A stretch of 64,000 nt of DNA from Pseudomonas silesiensis (GTDB lineage: Bacteria > Pseudomonadota > Gammaproteobacteria > Pseudomonadales > Pseudomonadaceae): NCBI RefSeq assembly GCF_001661075.1, contig NZ_CP014870.1, forward strand, positions 1,942,501 through 2,006,500, written 5' to 3'. The notes beneath the pieces are model-generated. The model made no database searches and was not told the origin of the DNA. It saw only the letters and a list, made by a program, of their open reading frames with translations. Below are positions 27,905 to 35,943 of this stretch, piece after piece (the first letter of the stretch is position 1; each line of letters starts with the position of its first letter). The position numbers were made by a program, and so were the translations under genes.

Positions 27905-27933
27905 AGACCCCGACTTGTCGGGGTCTTTTTTTT
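27905..27933. terminator. terminator after ibpA, shared with the convergent lipid operon
   Basis: AGACCCCGAC and GTCGGGGTCT form a perfect 10-base stem with a 2-base loop, then seven T. A-rich sequence on the left side makes it usable for the opposite strand too, where the lipid operon ends at 27953. Confidence 0.9.
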
Positions 27934-27952: not shown

Positions 27953-28885
27953 TCAGGTCCACCCATACCGGACCAGGTGAAAGAAGATCGGCGCCGCAAA
28001 GCACACCGAGTCCAGGCGGTCGAGCATGCCGCCGTGGCCTTCGATCATGTGCCCCCAATCCTTCACCCCGCGGTCGCGCTTGATGGCCGACATCACAATG
28101 CCGCCGGCGAACCCCAGCAGGTTGATCAGCAGGGCGATGAGCAGTGACTGCCAGGGACTGAACGGTGTGATCCACCACAAGGCACAACCGATCAACGAGG
28201 CCAGGAGGATGCCACCGACAAAGCCTTCCACTGTCTTGGACGGCGACAGGTTGGGGGCGATCTTGCGTTTGCCGAACAGTTTTCCACAGACGTACTGCAG
28301 CACATCCGACATCTGCACCACGATCACCAGGTAGGCGATCAACAGCAGGTTTCGTCCCTCGTAACCGGTGATGTCGAGGGTCAACAGGGCGGGCACGTGG
28401 GACACACAGAACACCGCGATCATCAGGCCCCACTGGACTTTGGAGGCGCGTTCGAGAAAGTGCGTGCTGTCGCCGCCCAGGGACGCGAGGATTGGCAGCA
28501 GCAGGAACACGTACACCGGGATGAAGATCGAGAATAGCCCGTACCAGTCGTAGTAGATGAGCAGGTACTGCAGCGGCAGTGCCAGGTAGAACGCCGCCAC
28601 CAGTGCCGGGTAATCGCTGCGACGGGTCGGTGTGAGGGTCATGAATTCGCGCAGGGCGTAGAAGGACACGGTGTAGAACAGCAGGATCACCGCCGTGGTG
28701 CCGAGCCAGAAGGCGATTCCGATCACCAGCACCATGACCCACCAGGCGTTGATCCGGGCGTTGAGGTTGTCGACCACCGGGTTCGCCGTGCCGCCCGCGC
28801 GCCGCTTGAGAATGAAACCGATCACCGAGGCCAGCAGCAGAAACGCGCCAATCCCGCCAAACAACATCAGGGTTTGTCTGTCCAT
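27953..28885 (-). CDS. ynbB: phosphatidate cytidylyltransferase (CDP-diglyceride synthase), YnbB-like
   Basis: The 310-residue integral membrane protein has about eight membrane helices and ends with the CdsA signature NLSPSKTVEGFVGG, followed by the acidic RDRGVKDWGHMIEGHGGMLDRLDS stretch that binds metal and CTP. It makes CDP-diacylglycerol from phosphatidic acid and CTP. This is not the housekeeping cdsA, which normally sits with dxr and bamA; here it is the last gene of a lipid operon like E. coli ynbABCD. It overlaps the acyltransferase gene. I prefer the ATG at 28885, with GAGGAG about 10 bases before it; the in-frame ATG at 28894 is too close to that site. Confidence 0.85.
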   Translation of the reverse strand: MDRQTLMLFGGIGAFLLLASVIGFILKRRAGGTANPVVDNLNARINAWWVMVLVIGIAFWLGTTAVILLFYTVSFYALREFMTLTPTRRSDYPALVAAFYLALPLQYLLIYYDWYGLFSIFIPVYVFLLLPILASLGGDSTHFLERASKVQWGLMIAVFCVSHVPALLTLDITGYEGRNLLLIAYLVIVVQMSDVLQYVCGKLFGKRKIAPNLSPSKTVEGFVGGILLASLIGCALWWITPFSPWQSLLIALLINLLGFAGGIVMSAIKRDRGVKDWGHMIEGHGGMLDRLDSVCFAAPIFFHLVRYGWT

Positions 28886-28886
28886 G

Positions 28887-29507
28887 TCAGGCATGCTCCT
28901 CGGCCAGGCTCAACAGCGCGTCGCGGCTGCGTTCGAGAAATTGCGCCTTGGTTTCGTCTTCGCCAAGGGCCAGGATGGCGCCAAAGCTGATGGTGCATAA
29001 CAGTGGCAGCGGCAGGACGCGGCCTTTGGGCATCACGCGGTTGAGGTTGGCGATCCACACCGGGATCAATTGAGCCTGGGGATAGGCTTTTGCCAGGTGA
29101 TACAGCCCGCTTTTGAACGGCAGCAGGCCGTCCTCTGGGTTGCGTGTGCCTTCAGGGAAAATGATCAGCGAATCGCCGCTTTCCAGGGCGTCGAGCATCG
29201 GCTGCAAGGGATTGTCGCCGGTCTCCTTGCGTTCGCGGTCGATCATTACGCCATTGAACACCCGGTTGATGATGTAGCGGCGCAGGGGACTTTTGAGCCA
29301 GTAATCGGCACCGGCCACCGGCCGGGTGATGCTGCGCAAGGTGGGTGGCAAGGAAGCCCACAACAACACGAAGTCGCCATGGCTGCTGTGGTTGGCGAAG
29401 TAGATGCGCTGCACCGCCTGCGGTGCACAGCCGAGCCACAGGCTGCGGGCTCCCGTGAGCAGGCGGGCGCCCGAGATGATGAGGGTGGCAATCGCGGGTG
29501 CGAGCAT
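28887..29507 (-). CDS. 1-acyl-sn-glycerol-3-phosphate acyltransferase (PlsC family)
   Basis: The 206-residue membrane-associated protein has the PlsC acyltransferase boxes in order: NHSSHGDFVLLWASL (H-x4-D catalytic box, near residue 40), the arginine region NRVFNGVMIDRERK, FPEGTRNPEDG (glycerophosphate binding, near residue 120) and LIPVWIANL. It should place the second acyl chain on lysophosphatidic acid, giving the phosphatidate used by the neighbouring CDP-diglyceride synthase. E. coli ynbABCD lacks such a gene, so this is an addition to the cassette. AAGGAG lies 5 bases before the ATG. It is a paralogue rather than the only PlsC of the cell, since the housekeeping gene usually lies elsewhere. 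Confidence 0.85.
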   Translation of the reverse strand: MLAPAIATLIISGARLLTGARSLWLGCAPQAVQRIYFANHSSHGDFVLLWASLPPTLRSITRPVAGADYWLKSPLRRYIINRVFNGVMIDRERKETGDNPLQPMLDALESGDSLIIFPEGTRNPEDGLLPFKSGLYHLAKAYPQAQLIPVWIANLNRVMPKGRVLPLPLLCTISFGAILALGEDETKAQFLERSRDALLSLAEEHA

Positions 29508-29516
29508 GAAAACTCC

Positions 29517-29972
29517 TTATCCAGCAAAGGTCAGCCAGGGGCCGGCCACAATGAAAACCAGGGTCAGCAGCACTTGTGCCGCCACCAGCAATGCCTGGCG
29601 ACGTAACAGCTTCAGAGCGCCAGAGATACGTTCGTTCCAGGGACGTCCGCCACGGTCGGCGGGCTGCAGGCCCAGCGCTGTCAGCGCATGGTCCAGGGCC
29701 TGGGTGCGTTCGGGGAGGTCTTGTGCACTGGCGGCCAGGTGCTGGAACAGATCGGCATCGAAGGCGACCCGCAGTGCCCAGTATTTTTGCCACAGGCCCA
29801 GTACCAGCAGCGCGACGCTGCAGGTCAGCCCCCAGGTTCCCGGGCTGGTCATGACAAATTGGCTCAGTCCGAGCAAGGCCCCCAGCAGCGTGAGCCCGGT
29901 GGACAGTCGGTCCAGCGAACCACCACGGCGCAACAGGCTCGCGGTCGCTTGCAGCTGCATATCAGTGGACAC
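29517..29972 (-). CDS. small membrane protein in the ynb-type lipid operon
   Basis: The 151-residue protein has three or four hydrophobic segments: TLLGALLGLSQFV and GLTCSVALLVLGLWQKYWAL near the N-terminus and LLVAAQVLLTLVFIVAGPWL at the end, with a soluble helical stretch between. I do not recognise a family. It starts with GTG (29972) after GGAG at 7 bases and overlaps the end of the phosphatase gene by 11 bases; an ATG at codon 5 directly follows that stop (TGATATG) and is an alternative. Its fixed position between the phosphatase and the acyltransferase suggests a subunit or assembly factor of the lipid pathway. Confidence 0.7.
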   Translation of the reverse strand: MSTDMQLQATASLLRRGGSLDRLSTGLTLLGALLGLSQFVMTSPGTWGLTCSVALLVLGLWQKYWALRVAFDADLFQHLAASAQDLPERTQALDHALTALGLQPADRGGRPWNERISGALKLLRRQALLVAAQVLLTLVFIVAGPWLTFAG

Positions 29973-31308
29973 AGACGTGCTCCGTGCTCATGGGTAACTG
30001 CTGCAGCACCTGTCGGTGCGCAGGGCCCAGGACGATCCCCGGACGTGCTCGCTGAATCAGCAGGATGGCGTCATCGACACTGGCGGCCCTGCCGCTGTGC
30101 AACAGCCACGCGGCTACGGCGATGGCGCTGCGTGAATAGCCCAGGGCGCAGCAGACCAGCAGCGGACCTTGCTGACGCAGGCTTTCGATCGCCTCGGCCG
30201 CTGCCTGGCATTGCGCGGCGGTGGGTACCGTAAGGTCCAGTACCGGCAGCGAGCGGTAACTGACCGAAACCGGATTCAGCGACAGCTCGGAACACAGGTC
30301 GAGTACCGCCCGAAACGGCGAGTGCTGCAATTCCCGTCGACCTGGCAGGCGTCCGAGCCAGACGTCATCGGTCACCCGGTCGGGCTGCGGATGGTGGCGA
30401 GTCCACAGGCGCGAGTTGAGCCAGGCCGCTGCCAGGTAGGGGGCCAGTAGCCAACGTACCGCGGGGGACAGGCGCCCATCGACGCGTTTCTGGAAACCGC
30501 GAGCGTCCAGCAGGGCGTAATTGAGCGCTACCAGCAGCAAGGCCACCGCTGGCCAGATCAACCACAGCCACGCGCCCCTCAAAGTAAAGGCCGGAATCGT
30601 GAAGGCTGCGGCACCCAAGCTGTAATACAACGCCAGTTGCCAGCGTTTTCTATCCTTTGGCAGATGAGCACCGTGCAGAGGGCCAGCTCCCTCCAGTGGC
30701 CACAGCCAGACGCACAGCCAACCGAGCAGCGCACCGGTGGGCAGGTCGACGAAATGGTGTTGGTAAGTGGTCAGCACCGACACTCCGATCAGGATGAACC
30801 AGCCATGCATCAACCCGCGCCACAGGCCCCGCAAGTGCCGCTGGTAGCAGCTCCATAACACCACCAGCAGAGCGATGTGCAGGGAGGGCGCCTGATTGAA
30901 CGGCTTGTCGAAACCTGCCAGGACATCGAACAGCCAGCCGAATACCCCATCCAGTTCGGGCCGGGCAAAGGTAAAGCGCAACGGCCAGATCAGAAAACAA
31001 CTGACGGCGACCAACTGGGCGGTTATCAGGCGCAGGGCGTGGCGCCTGAGTTCCAGGCGACTGGTCGGCAGCAACAGCGACAGGCCGTAGAGCAGGTCTA
31101 TGGACCAGTACGGGACGATGCTCCAGGCCCAGAACGGCATTTGGGTTTCCCAGTCGAACACCAGGCTGGCGACATCGTCCCGTTGAGTGGTGACCCAGGT
31201 GGCGAAGCCGTAGGTGGCGAAGAACAGCGGGGCCAGCAGCAACAGCCAGAGCAGTGCCGGTTTGAACAGGCCGGGTTCGCGTCCGGGCGTGGCAGTCAGG
31301 GGCATCAT
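29962..31308 (-). CDS. ynbD: fused PAP2 membrane phosphatase / dual-specificity phosphatase, YnbD-like
   Basis: The 448-residue protein joins two parts. The first ~300 residues are polytopic, with a PAP2-like region (PSLHIALLVVLWSCYQRHLR and YQHHFVDLPTGALLG, carrying the PAP2 histidines). The last ~150 are a cysteine phosphatase with LVCCALGYSRSAIAVAAWL, the C-x5-R loop of dual-specificity phosphatases. The same fusion is known from E. coli YnbD. It may dephosphorylate a lipid phosphate such as phosphatidylglycerol-phosphate or a phosphoinositol-like head group; dual-specificity phosphatases of the PTPMT1 type do this. The start ATG at 31308 overlaps the stop of the previous gene (ATGA). Confidence 0.85.
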   Translation of the reverse strand: MMPLTATPGREPGLFKPALLWLLLLAPLFFATYGFATWVTTQRDDVASLVFDWETQMPFWAWSIVPYWSIDLLYGLSLLLPTSRLELRRHALRLITAQLVAVSCFLIWPLRFTFARPELDGVFGWLFDVLAGFDKPFNQAPSLHIALLVVLWSCYQRHLRGLWRGLMHGWFILIGVSVLTTYQHHFVDLPTGALLGWLCVWLWPLEGAGPLHGAHLPKDRKRWQLALYYSLGAAAFTIPAFTLRGAWLWLIWPAVALLLVALNYALLDARGFQKRVDGRLSPAVRWLLAPYLAAAWLNSRLWTRHHPQPDRVTDDVWLGRLPGRRELQHSPFRAVLDLCSELSLNPVSVSYRSLPVLDLTVPTAAQCQAAAEAIESLRQQGPLLVCCALGYSRSAIAVAAWLLHSGRAASVDDAILLIQRARPGIVLGPAHRQVLQQLPMSTEHVCVH

Positions 31309-33059
31309 TGCACCCGTTGCGCCAGGGATACGCTGAAAATGCCCCATTGATCGACCCGCATGCCGATCTTGCGAAAGCCGGCGGCGGCTACGAGTTGGTC
31401 CATTTCCGCCTGGGTACGCCGGCGCATGACCCAGGCCAGGCCTTCACGGTGACTGGTCAAGGCGCGGGCGATCAGTTCCAGTTGCGGGTGCCAGGGCTGG
31501 CCGGTGTAGACCAGATATCCACCGGGTTCCACGGCGTCGGCCAGTCCGGCGAGTGAGCCACTGACCATCTGGTTGTCGGCGAACAGCTCATACAGGCCGG
31601 ACACCACCGCCAGCGTCGGCTTGGGATCGAGTGCGGCGAGGTCGGCACGGTCGAACGCATCGCCTTTGACGAATCGTGCGATAGCCTCCAGGCCTTTGTC
31701 GCGGATCAGTGCACCGCCGTCGCGCACGTTGATGTCGCTGTAGTCGCGCAACAGGATCGACTCGGGAAGCGGGTCGATGCCCTGTAAGGCTTCAAGAATG
31801 TAGCGCCCATGCCCGGCGGCAATGTCGACGATGCGCACTTCGCGACCCTGGTCACGCAGTTGTGCCATGGCCAGGCGCAGCAGTTCTTCGACATGCAGCT
31901 TGCGTTGGCGAATGCCGCGCCAGCCGATGGAGTCCAGGTAGTTACGGTCGATCAGGCGGCCAACGGCAGACGTGCCGGTGGGTGTGTTGCGGTAGACGTA
32001 GTCCAGGGTACTGCCGGAGTCGAAGCCGGTGTCGAAACCCAGCTTGAGCCCGGACGACAGCCGGCTGCCGAAGCCCATGCCGGTGCGGGTCATGCGCCAG
32101 TACAGTTCGCGCAGGGAGTTGCGGGGCAATGGCGCGGCCAATGATTCTGATTCGGCGCAGGTCAGGCCCAGACGGTCGGCGGCCAGCAGGGAAGGGCGGG
32201 CAGCCGGTTGTTGAAAGTTGTGCAGGATAAAACGACGAACGCTGGCAACGACGCTCTCGCGACGCTGTTCACCCAGGGTGTCATGGAAGAATCCCGGCAG
32301 GACATGTTTCTCCTTGTGCAGGCTGCCGAGGCGCTCGAAGAACTGTTCCTGTGGCTGGCGATGCACCACGAAATCGGCACCGGAGATCAACAACTGCGTC
32401 GGCACCTGGATGGCCTGGGCATCGGCCACCACTCGCTCGGCAGCGTCGTAAAGACCGAGCAGGACATTGACCGAAATCGCCTTGGTGATCAGCGGGTCGT
32501 CGTCGTAGCTGGCGACCCGTTGCGGGTCGTGGCTGAGAAACCGCGCTTTAACGTAGCTGTTGACGAAAAAGTTGCCGCGCCACCGGCGCATCAGCGCCAG
32601 CCCCTGGCGCGCGAAGGGCACGTAGAGTTTGACCTTGAACGCCGGTGACGCCAGCACCAGCGAGCGTATGCGTGGCGCGTAATCGTGGACCCAGGTGGCC
32701 ACGATCACTGCACCGACGCTCTGGGCGATCACCGCGATATTTTCTTCATCGATACCGTATGCCGCGCCCAGGTGATCGCAGAAGGTCTGCACGTCACGCA
32801 CGCTGGTGGCAAAACCCGGGCTGTCGCCACGGGCACCGGGCGAGAGGCCATGACCCCGGGCGTCCCAGGCAAAGAAATCATGGTCGGGCAGGTTCAGTTC
32901 ATCCACCAGATGAGCAATGCGCCCGGAGTGTTCATGGCCGCGGTGAAACAACAGCACGGCCTGTCGTGCTTCGCCCGGGGCCGTGGTGCCTGGCCAGTAG
33001 CGGTAAAACAATTCCACGCCGTCATGGGTGGTGAACGTCTGATGTTGAGCTTCGCGCAT
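31305..33059 (-). CDS. ynbC: bifunctional alpha/beta hydrolase / SAM-dependent methyltransferase, YnbC-like
   Basis: The 584-residue protein has an N-terminal alpha/beta hydrolase (about residues 1-280; VLLFHRGHEHSGR, nucleophile elbow VIAQSVGAVIV, catalytic histidine in GFFHDTLGE) and a C-terminal class I methyltransferase (about 390-584; SAM site RIVDIAAGHGRYILEAL, then RPTLAVVSGLYELF-like acidic loop). From memory it matches E. coli YnbC closely over both halves, including GFDSGSTLDYVYRN and SIGWRGIRQRK. The hydrolase resembles monoglyceride lipases, so a lysolipid or lipid substrate is likely, with methyl transfer to the same or a linked molecule. It overlaps the phosphatase gene by 4 bases and follows the synthase gene by 10. 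Confidence 0.88.
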   Translation of the reverse strand: MREAQHQTFTTHDGVELFYRYWPGTTAPGEARQAVLLFHRGHEHSGRIAHLVDELNLPDHDFFAWDARGHGLSPGARGDSPGFATSVRDVQTFCDHLGAAYGIDEENIAVIAQSVGAVIVATWVHDYAPRIRSLVLASPAFKVKLYVPFARQGLALMRRWRGNFFVNSYVKARFLSHDPQRVASYDDDPLITKAISVNVLLGLYDAAERVVADAQAIQVPTQLLISGADFVVHRQPQEQFFERLGSLHKEKHVLPGFFHDTLGEQRRESVVASVRRFILHNFQQPAARPSLLAADRLGLTCAESESLAAPLPRNSLRELYWRMTRTGMGFGSRLSSGLKLGFDTGFDSGSTLDYVYRNTPTGTSAVGRLIDRNYLDSIGWRGIRQRKLHVEELLRLAMAQLRDQGREVRIVDIAAGHGRYILEALQGIDPLPESILLRDYSDINVRDGGALIRDKGLEAIARFVKGDAFDRADLAALDPKPTLAVVSGLYELFADNQMVSGSLAGLADAVEPGGYLVYTGQPWHPQLELIARALTSHREGLAWVMRRRTQAEMDQLVAAAGFRKIGMRVDQWGIFSVSLAQRVQ

Positions 33060-33069
33060 TGCGCTGTCC

Positions 33070-33693
33070 TTATGCTGAAGGGGTGTCTTCGTGTACTTCC
33101 TTGAGGCCCTGGCGGACCCGATTGATCAGCGTGTAAACCAATAACACGGCGATGACTGCGAACACGCCGTTGATCCAAATGGCGCTGATCCAGCCCAGTG
33201 CGATAGCGACCGCCACGACACCCAGCACAAAAGCCCGATCACTTTTGCCCATGGGCCCGTCATAGCGTCGCGAGGCGCCAACCATGGGCCCCAGCACGCC
33301 GCCGTATTCGCTGAACAAGGCGAGCAGGGCGACCAGCAACACCAACCACAGGCTGACGCCCGGGAGCAGGGCGAACGGCAATATCAGGGCACAGTCGGCG
33401 GCGATATCGCACAGCTCATTGAGATAGGCCCCCAGGTGCGACTGCTGGTTGAACTCCCGGGCGAGCATGCCATCGATGGCGTTGAGCGCCATGCGCAGGA
33501 TCATCCATGCCGGCACCAGTAAAAATACCCATGGGTGCTGCGCGAAACCGGCGATCACCGCGCCCACCAGCACCGAGCCGATGCCTGCAATCAGGGTGAT
33601 CTGGTTGGCGGTGGTGCCTTGGTTGAACAGTCGTTGCACCAATGGTCGCAGGAGGTTTTGAAACGCCGGTTTGATCTGGTAGATGCTGGGCAC
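33070..33693 (-). CDS. ynbA: CDP-alcohol phosphatidyltransferase family protein, YnbA-like
   Basis: The 207-residue membrane enzyme carries the CDP-alcohol phosphatidyltransferase motif over LNAIDGMLAREF and GAYLNELCDIAAD: D-G-x2-A-R-x8-G-x3-D-x3-D is complete, but the very first Asp of the canonical motif is Asn here, as I also recall for E. coli YnbA. It would swap CMP of CDP-diacylglycerol for an alcohol head group; the alcohol is unknown. It is the first gene of the six-gene operon (ynbA-ynbC-ynbD-membrane protein-plsC-ynbB), all on the minus strand with overlaps or gaps of 10 bases or less. Confidence 0.87.
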   Translation of the reverse strand: MPSIYQIKPAFQNLLRPLVQRLFNQGTTANQITLIAGIGSVLVGAVIAGFAQHPWVFLLVPAWMILRMALNAIDGMLAREFNQQSHLGAYLNELCDIAADCALILPFALLPGVSLWLVLLVALLALFSEYGGVLGPMVGASRRYDGPMGKSDRAFVLGVVAVAIALGWISAIWINGVFAVIAVLLVYTLINRVRQGLKEVHEDTPSA

Positions 33694-33868
33694 GTCAGTA
33701 GGATCTCAGGGGAAAACAGTGTGTGGGCGAGTTTCGGTGGAGGCGATTTTTCAGTGTAGATGGGTTCGTGTGGGGACACGTTTAGTTGGCTGAGGAGATG
33801 TCGGGGGACGTCATTAATGATTGGGGTCATGGCTTCACCCAGGGCGTGGCAAGCTGCAGAGCGCAGGG

Positions 33869-34483
33869 TCATGGTCTTCCCCACGGAGAGGCCAGCTGCA
33901 AGGTGATGAGATAGCGTTCCTCGGTAGGACGTTTAACGTCCCTGAAGCGATTCACCACCAGCATCACTTGGAATTTGTCCTCCGCGCGCCAGTAAGTCGA
34001 ACCGCCTTTGTTTACGTCTCGTAAGCGGGCACGCCATTGCGGTGTGTCAGCGAAGGATGGAAAGTCCTGGAGCCGGATTGGCGTCCATCCGCCTTGGTGC
34101 CATTGCTCCTGCAAATCCAGGACGACCTTGAGCGTGTGGTCGAGCAATAGCGGCTCGATTTGGGGAGACATCCGAACACTGCTTACAGACTCATCGCTAT
34201 TGAAACTGACAGAGAAAAAGCGGGCCAGTGGTGTCACGAATCCGTATTTGGGATCTAAAAAACGAAGGCGAGCATCCGACCCTGGTAATCTCCCCCAAAA
34301 ATGCCCGGGAATCGCTGGATCAATGGCCGCGCTGGAGCGCTGGCGCATGTCCTCCCAAGGTTCACCAATTATCAGTGCAATTTCTGGATCATCCGAGAAC
34401 GTTTGAATCGCCGTCAGCGTAATAACGGCAGCGACTGCCAGTGCCAGGCCCCGTCGCCAGTCCACACGTAAGCGCAAGCTCAT
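33869..34483 (-). CDS. membrane-anchored hypothetical protein, candidate immunity protein for the PAAR protein
   Basis: The 204-residue protein has an N-terminal membrane anchor or uncleaved signal (GLALAVAAVITLTAIQTF) and a soluble region that should lie in the periplasm; no domain is recognised. Its start overlaps the stop of the PAAR-domain gene (ATGA at 34483-34480), which makes the two translationally coupled. Small proteins coded directly after a PAAR-toxin gene are commonly cognate immunity proteins, and a periplasmic placement would fit a toxin that acts on the envelope. This function is inferred from position only; it might instead be an accessory or adaptor. Confidence 0.6.
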   Translation of the reverse strand: MSLRLRVDWRRGLALAVAAVITLTAIQTFSDDPEIALIIGEPWEDMRQRSSAAIDPAIPGHFWGRLPGSDARLRFLDPKYGFVTPLARFFSVSFNSDESVSSVRMSPQIEPLLLDHTLKVVLDLQEQWHQGGWTPIRLQDFPSFADTPQWRARLRDVNKGGSTYWRAEDKFQVMLVVNRFRDVKRPTEERYLITLQLASPWGRP

Positions 34484-35943
34484 AGCACGCCCCGACCTGC
34501 GGCAATGTCCTTAATCGACTTTTCGATCAGCTGGCGATCGGGGCCCCGTAGCAGGTCATCAAACTGAGTTGCAGCCTTTAGCACGAAAAGCATGCGTTGC
34601 TGGATATCGGCCAAATTCGCGCGGCGATCATTGCTGAAGCCAATGGTGCGTCCGTCATCGACTGGGCGGCACTGGCTGGCCAAGGTTAGTTCGATAGCCT
34701 CAGCGGCGCCGGACGGGACGCCGGTGATATAGGAAACATGGTTGCTACGCAGCAGCCATACCAGTCCTTGGTCGCTGTACATCACCGGTTGCAGAATGTT
34801 GCGCTGTTCGTGCAAAGCAAGATGCTCAACACTTTCAGCAATCTTGCCGTCCTCAATAGCCTTGAAAGCTCGCAGGATTTCCTTGTAATCAGTTCCAAAT
34901 TTCAGCGTTTCCTGCGCGACCGGCCACAGGACCGGATGCTGATCATGTCCATAAATATTTTGGCGTGCCTCCAGGCAGGTTTCGAGCGACCACAAACCCC
35001 GCTCCTTGTAGAAAGCATGCAGCGCAAACACATCCAGAAACAGCGTGGTATTACCCATGGCCAGCATCTCGTACACGAATTTGTACATCCGCTGTGCGTA
35101 CGGCAGTGCGTGGTCGCCGCCTCCGATGCCACTACCCGGCACCGGATTGTTGCGGTCGGCTTGCTCGTAGTCGCGCTGCGCCTGCTCGAACTCCCGCAGT
35201 TTCGCCTGCCGTTCACGCTCACTGGGGCCGAACAAGCCAAAGAATCCTTTCCTGGCGCTGTTCTTCAAACGTTGTGCCGCTTCATATTCCGCCTGCATCT
35301 TGTCGATCGAATTGGCGGCATGCAGCAGGCCACACCCAACTTGCTTTGAGGCGAAAGCCGCAAGTCCCGCCCATTGAAAACGCCGATCGTCCAGCCACAA
35401 CTGCGCGTAAGCGGCATTGATCGCACGATTGCGCGCCTTGGGATCGGCAATCAGTACGCCGCCCGGCGCCACGATGGCTTCGGCGCGTTGTTGATACCCG
35501 CGCCAGAGGTTCTGACAGACCAGCCCCGGCAGTTCGCTGAAAGACGGTGAGGGTGCCGTTCGCGCCGGCGAATAGCTGGATGGGCGTGGTGCTGCCGGAT
35601 CGCTGCGGAAAGTAGTAGTGGCTGGCTGAGCTGCGGCACGGGTGCCTTGCGGCGCAACGGCCTCCCTGGAGGAGTAAGTGGCCGTTTTTAGCGAGGGGAT
35701 CAACTCGGCTCTGCAAGGGCAAGAGCTGACGCTGTCCAGCGTCCCTGCCAAGAGCCGGCCGTTGCTTCGCATGTGCGAAATCCCGCCGGCGATCGCGTAA
35801 GTCTTACCGGTTATTCCGCAGGAAACTCCATCCCCGTCGCGGGCATGGTTTTCGCCAAACATCGTAATGCAGGGTTCGGCATCCAGCACAGTGCCGCCGC
35901 AGGTGGTCTTGTCGCCTTGGCGAATGTAGTACCCGACTGCCAT
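34480..35943 (-). CDS. PAAR-domain protein with large C-terminal extension, candidate type VI secretion effector
   Basis: The 487-residue protein starts with a PAAR-type spike-tip domain (about residues 1-90: YYIRQGDKTTCGGTVLD, ARDGDGVSCGITGKTYAIAG, with His and Cys residues that can bind zinc). A Pro/Ser/Thr-rich linker follows (about 95-140), then a helical C-terminal region of about 340 residues that I do not recognise with certainty; it faintly recalls DUF2515. PAAR proteins sharpen the VgrG spike of the type VI system and carry toxins as extensions. No VgrG or other T6SS gene lies in the window, so it would be an orphan effector locus. Base composition looks less GC-rich by eye than its neighbours, suggesting acquisition. 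The ATG at 35943 has no clear strong ribosome site. Confidence 0.75.
   Translation of the reverse strand: MAVGYYIRQGDKTTCGGTVLDAEPCITMFGENHARDGDGVSCGITGKTYAIAGGISHMRSNGRLLAGTLDSVSSCPCRAELIPSLKTATYSSREAVAPQGTRAAAQPATTTFRSDPAAPRPSSYSPARTAPSPSFSELPGLVCQNLWRGYQQRAEAIVAPGGVLIADPKARNRAINAAYAQLWLDDRRFQWAGLAAFASKQVGCGLLHAANSIDKMQAEYEAAQRLKNSARKGFFGLFGPSERERQAKLREFEQAQRDYEQADRNNPVPGSGIGGGDHALPYAQRMYKFVYEMLAMGNTTLFLDVFALHAFYKERGLWSLETCLEARQNIYGHDQHPVLWPVAQETLKFGTDYKEILRAFKAIEDGKIAESVEHLALHEQRNILQPVMYSDQGLVWLLRSNHVSYITGVPSGAAEAIELTLASQCRPVDDGRTIGFSNDRRANLADIQQRMLFVLKAATQFDDLLRGPDRQLIEKSIKDIAAGRGVL

What the first reader, a model, noticed from the sequence alone, without database searches (positions are those of the whole stretch)
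27953..33693. Six-gene ynb-type lipid cassette with an added acyltransferase and a membrane protein
CDP-alcohol transferase, hydrolase/methyltransferase fusion, PAP2/dual-specificity phosphatase fusion, small membrane protein, PlsC and CDP-diglyceride synthase are all coupled by overlaps or very short gaps. Together they could build a complete phospholipid branch: acylate, activate with CTP, attach an unknown alcohol phosphate, dephosphorylate it, and trim and methylate the product. E. coli ynbABCD has the other four; the extra PlsC makes the route self-contained. The product lipid is not known to me. This is the strongest candidate in the window for an undescribed pathway.
Basis: partly seen in the sequence, partly recalled or inferred. 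Interest (0 to 1): 0.7.

Follow-up and report, generated by a model that had tools for sequence, protein, structure and literature searches.

The report
Arc1 lipid-defence operon of Pseudomonas
This looks like the Pseudomonas version of a known six-gene membrane-lipid operon (arc1) that helps bacteria survive lipid-cutting toxins injected by rivals; its lipid product is still unknown, and its head-group enzyme lacks two active-site residues that are otherwise held to be universal.

Summary
In detail: six minus-strand genes at 27953-33693, coupled by overlaps or gaps of at most 10 nt. "Undescribed pathway" does not hold: by gene kind and order it matches P. aeruginosa PA2541-PA2536, named arc1A-F (eLife 2022), a Gac/Rsm-controlled antagonism-resistance cluster; a 2025 study ties arc1A to resistance to T6SS lipase effectors. 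PAO1 sequence was out of reach, so orthology rests on published descriptions. None of the passages I read names the product lipid. The recurrent unit is CDP-alcohol transferase + PlsC + CDP-DAG synthase (8 of 10 genomes with the transferase but no ynbC-type gene). E. coli ynbABCD lacks PlsC; the closest YnbA relative in my tree has it. New here: YnbA/Arc1A has Asn at signature aspartates D1 and D3 (117 of 117 orthologues), with Glu after D3 and Arg four residues before D1. A second Asn/Asn family (20 of 20) also sits beside a CDP-DAG synthase gene (19 of 20); 50 of 50 other CDP-alcohol transferases from 15 of these genomes are Asp/Asp, none beside such genes. The window's arc1A leader has no RsmA-type GGA near its start, so Gac/Rsm control here is open.

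The parts
33070..33693 (-). arc1A/ynbA: CDP-alcohol transferase fold, Asn/Asn type (gene A)
   Evidence: PF01066 31.3 bits; 47% identity to E. coli YnbA; motif NAIDGMLAREFNQQSHLGAYLNELCD, N at D1 and D3
31305..33059 (-). arc1B/ynbC: monoacylglycerol-lipase-like hydrolase fused to Methyltransf_20 (gene B)
   Evidence: PF12146, PF12147; 57% identity to YnbC; nearest solved structure of the hydrolase part is monoacylglycerol lipase 6qe2, 2.9e-19; nucleophile motif [AG]QSVGA found in 118 of 122
29962..31308 (-). arc1C/ynbD: PAP2-like membrane half and dual-specificity phosphatase half (gene C)
   Evidence: DSPc over cut-off, PAP2 below cut-off; PSLH in 113 of 114, QHHxxD in 114 of 114, C-x5-R in 112 of 114; 41% identity to YnbD
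29517..29972 (-). arc1D: 151-aa membrane protein without a known family (gene D); absent in E. coli
   Evidence: no Pfam or NCBIfam match; six invariant positions in 21 aligned rows
28887..29507 (-). arc1E: PlsC-type acyltransferase (gene E); absent from E. coli ynb
   Evidence: PF01553 64.8 bits; H-x4-D in 112 of 113, FPEGTR in 113 of 113
27953..28894 (-). arc1F/ynbB: CDP-diacylglycerol synthase paralogue (gene F)
   Evidence: PF01148 250.9 bits; CDS C-terminal signature in 110 of 114; 41% identity to YnbB
33694..33768 (-). leader of gene A: no GGA in the 75 nt before the GTG start, so no RsmA-type site at the Shine-Dalgarno position
   Evidence: no sigma-70-like promoter found by the simple scan
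27906..27933 (.). inverted repeat GACCCCGAC-TT-GTCGGGGTC flanked by A and T runs, terminator-like on both strands, just after gene F
   Evidence: read by eye; the scan does not list it

Best explanation
This is most likely the arc1 operon (arc1A-F; PA2541-PA2536 in P. aeruginosa) of a Pseudomonas of the fluorescens kind. Inferred route: E acylates lysophosphatidic acid to phosphatidic acid; F activates it with CTP to CDP-diacylglycerol; A, an unusual Asn/Asn member of the CDP-alcohol transferase fold, moves the phosphatidyl group to an acceptor not yet known (or otherwise uses the CDP-DAG). This A-E-F triad is the core. B (hydrolase plus methyltransferase), C (PAP2-like plus dual-specificity phosphatase) and D (membrane protein) are optional tailoring or helper parts that sit between A and E-F in most of the Pseudomonas loci seen. 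Physiologically, the product or the flux protects the envelope when lipase effectors of a rival's type VI secretion system cut membrane phospholipids. Shown by others in P. aeruginosa: Gac/Rsm control, and sensitivity of arc1 mutants to T6SS attack and to lipase effectors. Shown here: gene content and order, kept and lost catalytic residues, the core triad, and no RsmA-type site at the start of the window's first gene. Inferred: every enzymatic step, and that this strain uses the operon in the same way.
For: Gene kinds and order match the papers: six genes read from PA2541 to PA2536, five lipid-related, four resembling phosphatidylglycerol-synthesis enzymes; PA2537 acyltransferase, PA2536 phosphatidate cytidylyltransferase. 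arc1A contributes to resistance to TseL and Tle1 lipases. Order exact in 101 of 122 loci. A-E-F or A-F-E in 8 of 10 genomes with A but no B, and in 4 of 4 examined genomes where B lies elsewhere. 27 of 27 B-bearing genomes of a 398-genome sample also carry A. Catalytic motifs of B, C, E and F kept in nearly all rows. RsmZ present in the genome.
Against: PAO1 sequences were not compared. The window's arc1A leader lacks the GGA site that the P. aeruginosa gene is said to have. [quoted passage not shown] arc1A is auxiliary to arc3A against V. cholerae. arc1 mutants behaved like wild type under heat, peroxide, salt and detergent. D1 and D3 of gene A are Asn, a change that cuts activity in a related enzyme, so A may not be an ordinary transferase. 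Three genomes have A with B but no E-F beside it, though each has a strong F elsewhere.
Confidence: 0.72

Rival explanations
1. One reading: A adds an alcohol phosphate (as PIP synthase adds inositol phosphate), C removes the phosphate (as PTPMT1 does for phosphatidylglycerophosphate), and B trims and methylates the product.
For: Nearest solved relatives of A are PIP synthases (6h53, 5e-10); by my count on that printed alignment A's invariant R192 aligns with R195, an inositol-phosphate ligand; C carries a DSP domain with C-x5-R and PTPMT1 is among its matches (1.9e-8).
Against: C is missing from the neighbourhood in 8 of 122 loci and in all 8 minimal A-E-F loci. D1 and D3 are Asn. NCBIfam scores for archaetidylinositol-P and PIP synthase are far below cut-off (70 vs 180, 41 vs 170). 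The second PIPS arginine, R155, is one residue off in the alignment.
Confidence: 0.3
2. A glycolipid branch of the MPIase kind: F, or F with A, makes a GlcNAc-PP-diacylglycerol-like precursor with a sugar phosphate as the attacking group, and C and B act on it. The Asn/Asn site with a nearby Arg would suit a phosphate nucleophile that needs no deprotonation.
For: Overproduced E. coli YnbB raises MPIase and cannot replace CdsA for growth; a review reports CDP-DAG synthesis by YnbB in vitro and MPIase but not phospholipid restoration. Asn/Asn site with Arg at D1-4.
Against: The ynbB knockout has normal MPIase; the papers ascribe compound I formation to CdsA/YnbB themselves, not to YnbA; ynbB was found not to be needed for phosphoglyceride-linked ECA. 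No test of YnbA was seen in these passages.
Confidence: 0.12
3. A is no longer an enzyme: it binds CDP-DAG or organises the complex, and protection comes from PA/CDP-DAG supply (E, F) and from lysolipid removal or exchange by B and C.
For: Two of four signature Asp replaced in 117 of 117; Asp-to-Asn or Ser changes reduce or abolish activity in MjPSS. B resembles monoacylglycerol lipases.
Against: D2, D4, G and the following D are invariant over rows as low as 44% identical; the second family loses the AR arginine but keeps the rest, which looks like a rebuilt rather than a dead site; A is needed for defence in P. aeruginosa, though a scaffold could be too.
Confidence: 0.15

Closest known systems
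P. aeruginosa arc1A-F (PA2541-PA2536), antagonism resistance cluster 1
   Same: Six genes, same kinds and order as far as the papers describe them
   Different: Sequence not compared here; the window's first gene lacks the GGA site at its start
E. coli ynbABCD
   Same: Four homologues, 41-57% identical, including the Asn/Asn motif in YnbA
   Different: E. coli order is A-F-B-C and it has no PlsC and no gene D in the 12-kb region
PIP / archaetidylinositol-phosphate synthases (CDP-alcohol transferases)
   Same: Fold family, closest solved structures, D2, D4, G2 and the aligned R195 position kept
   Different: D1 and D3 are Asn, Arg at D1-4, Glu after D3; NCBIfam scores below cut-off
arc3A,B (PA5114-13) and aas (PA3267)
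   Same: Implicated in resistance to lipase effectors in P. aeruginosa; arc3 is Gac/Rsm-controlled, and one search's paper counts aas in that regulon too
   Different: Unrelated proteins; Arc3 prevents lysophospholipid build-up and Aas reacylates LPE, while Arc1 looks biosynthetic

Membership tests
arc1 (PA2541-36) | Six genes of these kinds in this order | tested here: met
   Window against the papers' descriptions; the papers do not spell out every gene in the passages I read
arc1 (PA2541-36) | Sequence orthology to PAO1 genes | not testable with these tools
   No named P. aeruginosa genome was reachable; the one genome-contig scan returned none
arc1 (PA2541-36) | Gac/Rsm control, RsmA site at the Shine-Dalgarno of the first gene | tested here: inconclusive
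   No GGA within 25 nt of the start in the window and in 46 other of 117 loci; A(N)GGA in 64. RsmZ is in the genome. Absence at this place does not exclude control elsewhere
arc1 (PA2541-36) | Protection against T6SS lipase effectors | not testable with these tools
   Needs competition assays; published for P. aeruginosa only in what I read
ynbABCD | Homologues of YnbA, YnbB, YnbC, YnbD in one operon | tested here: met
   41-57% identity; order differs and two genes are extra
Canonical CDP-alcohol transferases | PF01066 over cut-off | tested here: met
   31.3 bits, cut-off 22
Canonical CDP-alcohol transferases | Signature D1xxD2G1xxAR...G2xxxD3xxxD4 | tested here: not met
   N at D1 and D3 in 117 of 117; so it is a homologue, not filed as a canonical member
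PIP synthase / archaetidylinositol-phosphate synthase | NCBIfam equivalog cut-off | tested here: not met
   41 vs 170 and 70 vs 180 bits
PlsC acyltransferases | H-x4-D and EGTR motifs | tested here: met
   112 of 113 and 113 of 113; TIGR00530 is below its cut-off (52 vs 103), so the lysophosphatidic-acid substrate is inferred
CDP-DAG synthases (CdsA/YnbB) | C-terminal CDS signature | tested here: met
   S-x3-K in 111 of 114, long signature in 110 of 114
PAP2 phosphatases | Pfam PAP2 cut-off | tested here: not met
   20.4 vs 27.2 bits, although PSLH and QHHxxD are kept

The most novel reading that the evidence does not exclude
The Asn/Asn CDP-alcohol transferases (YnbA/Arc1A and the second family found here) are one clade with a rebuilt active site - fewer metals, with an Arg and a shifted acid in their stead - that takes CDP-DAG from a dedicated PlsC and CDP-DAG synthase and makes a phospholipid by chemistry not seen in known members, possibly with a phosphate as the attacking group. 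Arc1 would be its use in defence against lipases.
Probability: 0.3. Interest if true: 0.8.

Novelty: new member of a known kind. Interest (0 to 1): 0.5.

Why it matters
The cassette is a known defence against the lipid-cutting weapons of rival bacteria, but what it makes is not reported in the papers I saw. Showing that transferase, PlsC and CDP-DAG synthase are the recurrent core narrows the question to three enzymes and one product. Showing that the transferase lacks two of the four metal-binding aspartates throughout the family says that textbook CDP-alcohol transferase chemistry should not be assumed, and it makes the question directly testable with purified protein and with E. coli K-12.

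Tried and rejected
T6SS cargo next door: a PAAR-DUF2515 gene and a 204-aa gene lie upstream of A, but relatives occur in only 8 and 7 of 134 neighbourhoods, and a PAAR lies within 10 kb of A in only 2 of 16 genomes, the window's own included (measured against the positions). Rejected as a passenger.

PIPS arginine R155: the printed alignment puts A's R153 one residue off, so I claim only R195/R192.

A first gene-order count was spoiled by shadow reading frames and was replaced. A motif search for the hydrolase nucleophile first hit the wrong loop and was redone. The residue after D3 was mis-indexed and redone.

Rows dropped: searches counted only rows already matching Asn/Asn; of 135 A-set loci 6 gave no such row - five have no A in the stretch (L086, L167, L170-L172) and L229 has Ala at D1. 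(A) did not require Asn; (second family) did not either but kept only motif matches holding a Glu.

Full report
What is there. The six genes lie at 27953-33693 on the minus strand, coupled by a 10-nt gap, a 4-nt overlap, an 11-nt overlap, a 9-nt gap and an 8-nt overlap. I call them A to F in transcription order: CDP-alcohol transferase, hydrolase/methyltransferase, PAP2/dual-specificity phosphatase, small membrane protein, PlsC, CDP-DAG synthase. Pfam supports A, B, E, F and the DSP half of C above cut-off; the PAP2 half is below cut-off but keeps PSLH and QHHxxD; D has no family. E. coli YnbA, YnbC, YnbD and YnbB are 47, 57, 41 and 41% identical to A, B, C and F.

What it is. Papers in the held library describe the same gene set in P. 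aeruginosa as PA2541-PA2536, named arc1A-F. In Ting et al. 2022 (PMC8926400; abstract, sections 5 and 6 and found passages) these genes are under Gac/Rsm control, are needed to survive T6SS attack, and encode five lipid-related proteins, four resembling phosphatidylglycerol-synthesis enzymes; a second deletion in the operon added nothing, which the authors take as one pathway. [quoted passage not shown] only one Arc1 gene passed the threshold for Tle3 and one for ColA; arc1 loss did not alter survival of heat, peroxide, salt or detergent. In a 2025 paper (PMC12663445, passages) strains lacking tssM1 and arc1A are more sensitive to V. cholerae, the sensitivity falls when TseL is inactive, and they are more sensitive to A. 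baylyi carrying only the lipase Tle1; against V. cholerae arc1A is auxiliary to arc3A. A PA2537 (acyltransferase) transposon mutant had altered colonies and reduced survival in a mixed infection (PMC2246019, passages); PA2536 is called a phosphatidate cytidylyltransferase (PMC8190622, passage). I first thought of the PA numbers from memory; the searches then brought these papers. No named P. aeruginosa sequence was within reach, so orthology is by gene kind and order. None of these passages names a lipid product; I did not read the papers whole.

How constant it is. A-B-C-D-E-F is exact in 101 of 122; five more have it with one gene hit twice; one has a 2.3-kb insertion after B. The rest: A-B-E-F (3), B alone (3), B-C with A on the other strand (2), one each of A-B, B-C-D, A-B-D-E-F, A-B-C-D with E-F on the other strand, E. 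coli A-F-B-C, and two loci cut by contig ends (L065, L086). In Pseudomonadota the B domain occurs in 27 of 398 genomes and A (E below 1e-45) in 37 of 398; all 27 B genomes have A. In the window's family 163 of 398 genomes have a B-domain match, 161 over cut-off.

The core is A-E-F. Ten genomes of the 398 have A without B. In eight of them A lies beside E and F, as A-E-F or A-F-E; one is decayed (L231) and one has a lone divergent A (L229). Four genomes in which B lies without A (L167, L170-L172) have an intact A-E-F at another place (L232-L235); of eight genomes searched, seven have a strong A and one (G602) has none. Three genomes have A with B but no E-F beside them (L150, L151, L156); each has a strong F elsewhere, in one of them (G043) next to E and a transferase of the second family described below. 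So the acyltransferase is not an addition to ynb. In a tree of 67 rows E. coli YnbA is sister (100/100) to L224, 71% identical, whose locus is A-F-E with PlsC and whose genome has no PF12147 match. I read E. coli ynbABCD as a variant that lacks PlsC. The phosphatase C is missing from the neighbourhood in the eight minimal loci and in L156, L157, L169-L173 and L179, which speaks against dephosphorylation by C as a universal step; the rest of those genomes was not searched for C.

An unexpected active site. Structural papers call eight residues of CDP-alcohol transferases absolutely conserved, D1xxD2G1xxAR...G2xxxD3xxxD4 (PMC4634129, passage); the four Asp bind two metals in M. tuberculosis PgsA1 (PMC6506517, passages), and their change to Ser or Asn in MjPSS reduces or abolishes activity (PMC8633023, passage). 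In A, D1 and D3 are Asn in 117 of 117 orthologues, E. coli YnbA included. Among 129 Asn/Asn rows Glu follows D3 in 129 and Arg stands at D1-4 in 129. Searching with A also brought 13 weaker matches that I fetched: 10 belong to a second family, also Asn/Asn, 9 of these 10 with E and F within about 4 kb; the other 3 are Asp/Asp with neither. A search with the second family found 20 strong members in 383 genomes: 20 of 20 Asn/Asn; F within 1.5 kb in 19 of 20 and E in 16 of 20. As controls I took the 50 other PF01066 matches listed for 15 of these genomes: 50 of 50 are Asp/Asp, and E or F lies within 1.5 kb in 0 of 50 (for phosphatidylcholine-synthase-like ones the motif needs a longer spacer, and two stretches are cut by a contig end). 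Fisher's exact test for F beside the second family against the first 31 controls gives 4e-13; related genomes are not independent. Arg at D1-4 is in 0 of 34 controls counted and in none of the 19 printed. In the tree the two Asn/Asn families lie together on one side of a branch (97/88), but some control rows have long branches, and the tree is unrooted. One exception, L229, has Ala at D1 and lacks E-F. I saw no paper describing this motif; the nearest searches were made, none of them specific to it.

Regulation. PA2541 is listed as having one RsmA site at its Shine-Dalgarno (PMC4066749, passage). Of 117 loci, 64 have A(N)GGA within 25 nt of the start of A, 6 more have GGA, and 47 have none, the window among them. 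Three unnamed relatives from another genus of the family (L160-L162) keep AAGGA. The genome has RsmZ. Whether the window's operon answers to Gac is therefore open.

Mechanism. My best reading: E makes phosphatidic acid, F makes CDP-DAG, A uses it for an unknown phospholipid, B and C tailor it, D is a helper of unknown role. R192 of A, invariant in 29 rows, aligns with R195 of PIP synthase, an inositol-phosphate ligand, which keeps a phosphate-bearing acceptor possible. The MPIase work on YnbB (PMC6362211 and PMC7018664, passages) is the main rival for the product class. None of the steps has been shown for this strain.

Verdict. A real, conserved operon, most likely the known defence cluster arc1, with an unknown product; a new member of a known kind. 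The core triad and the Asn/Asn active site are what this analysis adds.

Noticed in passing
L236-L244, L247, L257-L276: A second Asn/Asn CDP-alcohol transferase family (N-x2-DG-x-VAxE...N[ED]xxD) beside PlsC and CDP-DAG synthase genes in Pseudomonadota; its function is unknown to me.
   Followed up: partly
window 33869-35943 (-): A PAAR-DUF2515 gene (34480-35943) and an overlapping 204-aa gene without family (33869-34483) just upstream of A look like a T6SS cargo pair; relatives in 8 and 7 of 134 neighbourhoods.
   Followed up: partly
leaders of gene A, 117 loci (window 33694-33768): The RsmA-type A(N)GGA site before arc1A is kept in 64 loci and no GGA is found in 47, the window included, so control may differ between Pseudomonas lineages.
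   Followed up: partly
L232 15789-17840, L233 2125-4176: A vgrG gene lies about 5-6 kb from the A-E-F triad in two genomes of one genus.
   Followed up: no
L154 10499-12658: A 720-aa WG-repeat protein gene is inserted between B and C.
   Followed up: no
L227 861-1397: A VTT-domain-like membrane protein gene (weak match) follows E in one minimal A-F-E locus.
   Followed up: no
L150, L151 and L247: Two genomes carry B-C with A on the other strand but no E-F beside it; in one of them (G043) an E-F pair sits with the second transferase family elsewhere, so the supply pair may be shared.
   Followed up: partly
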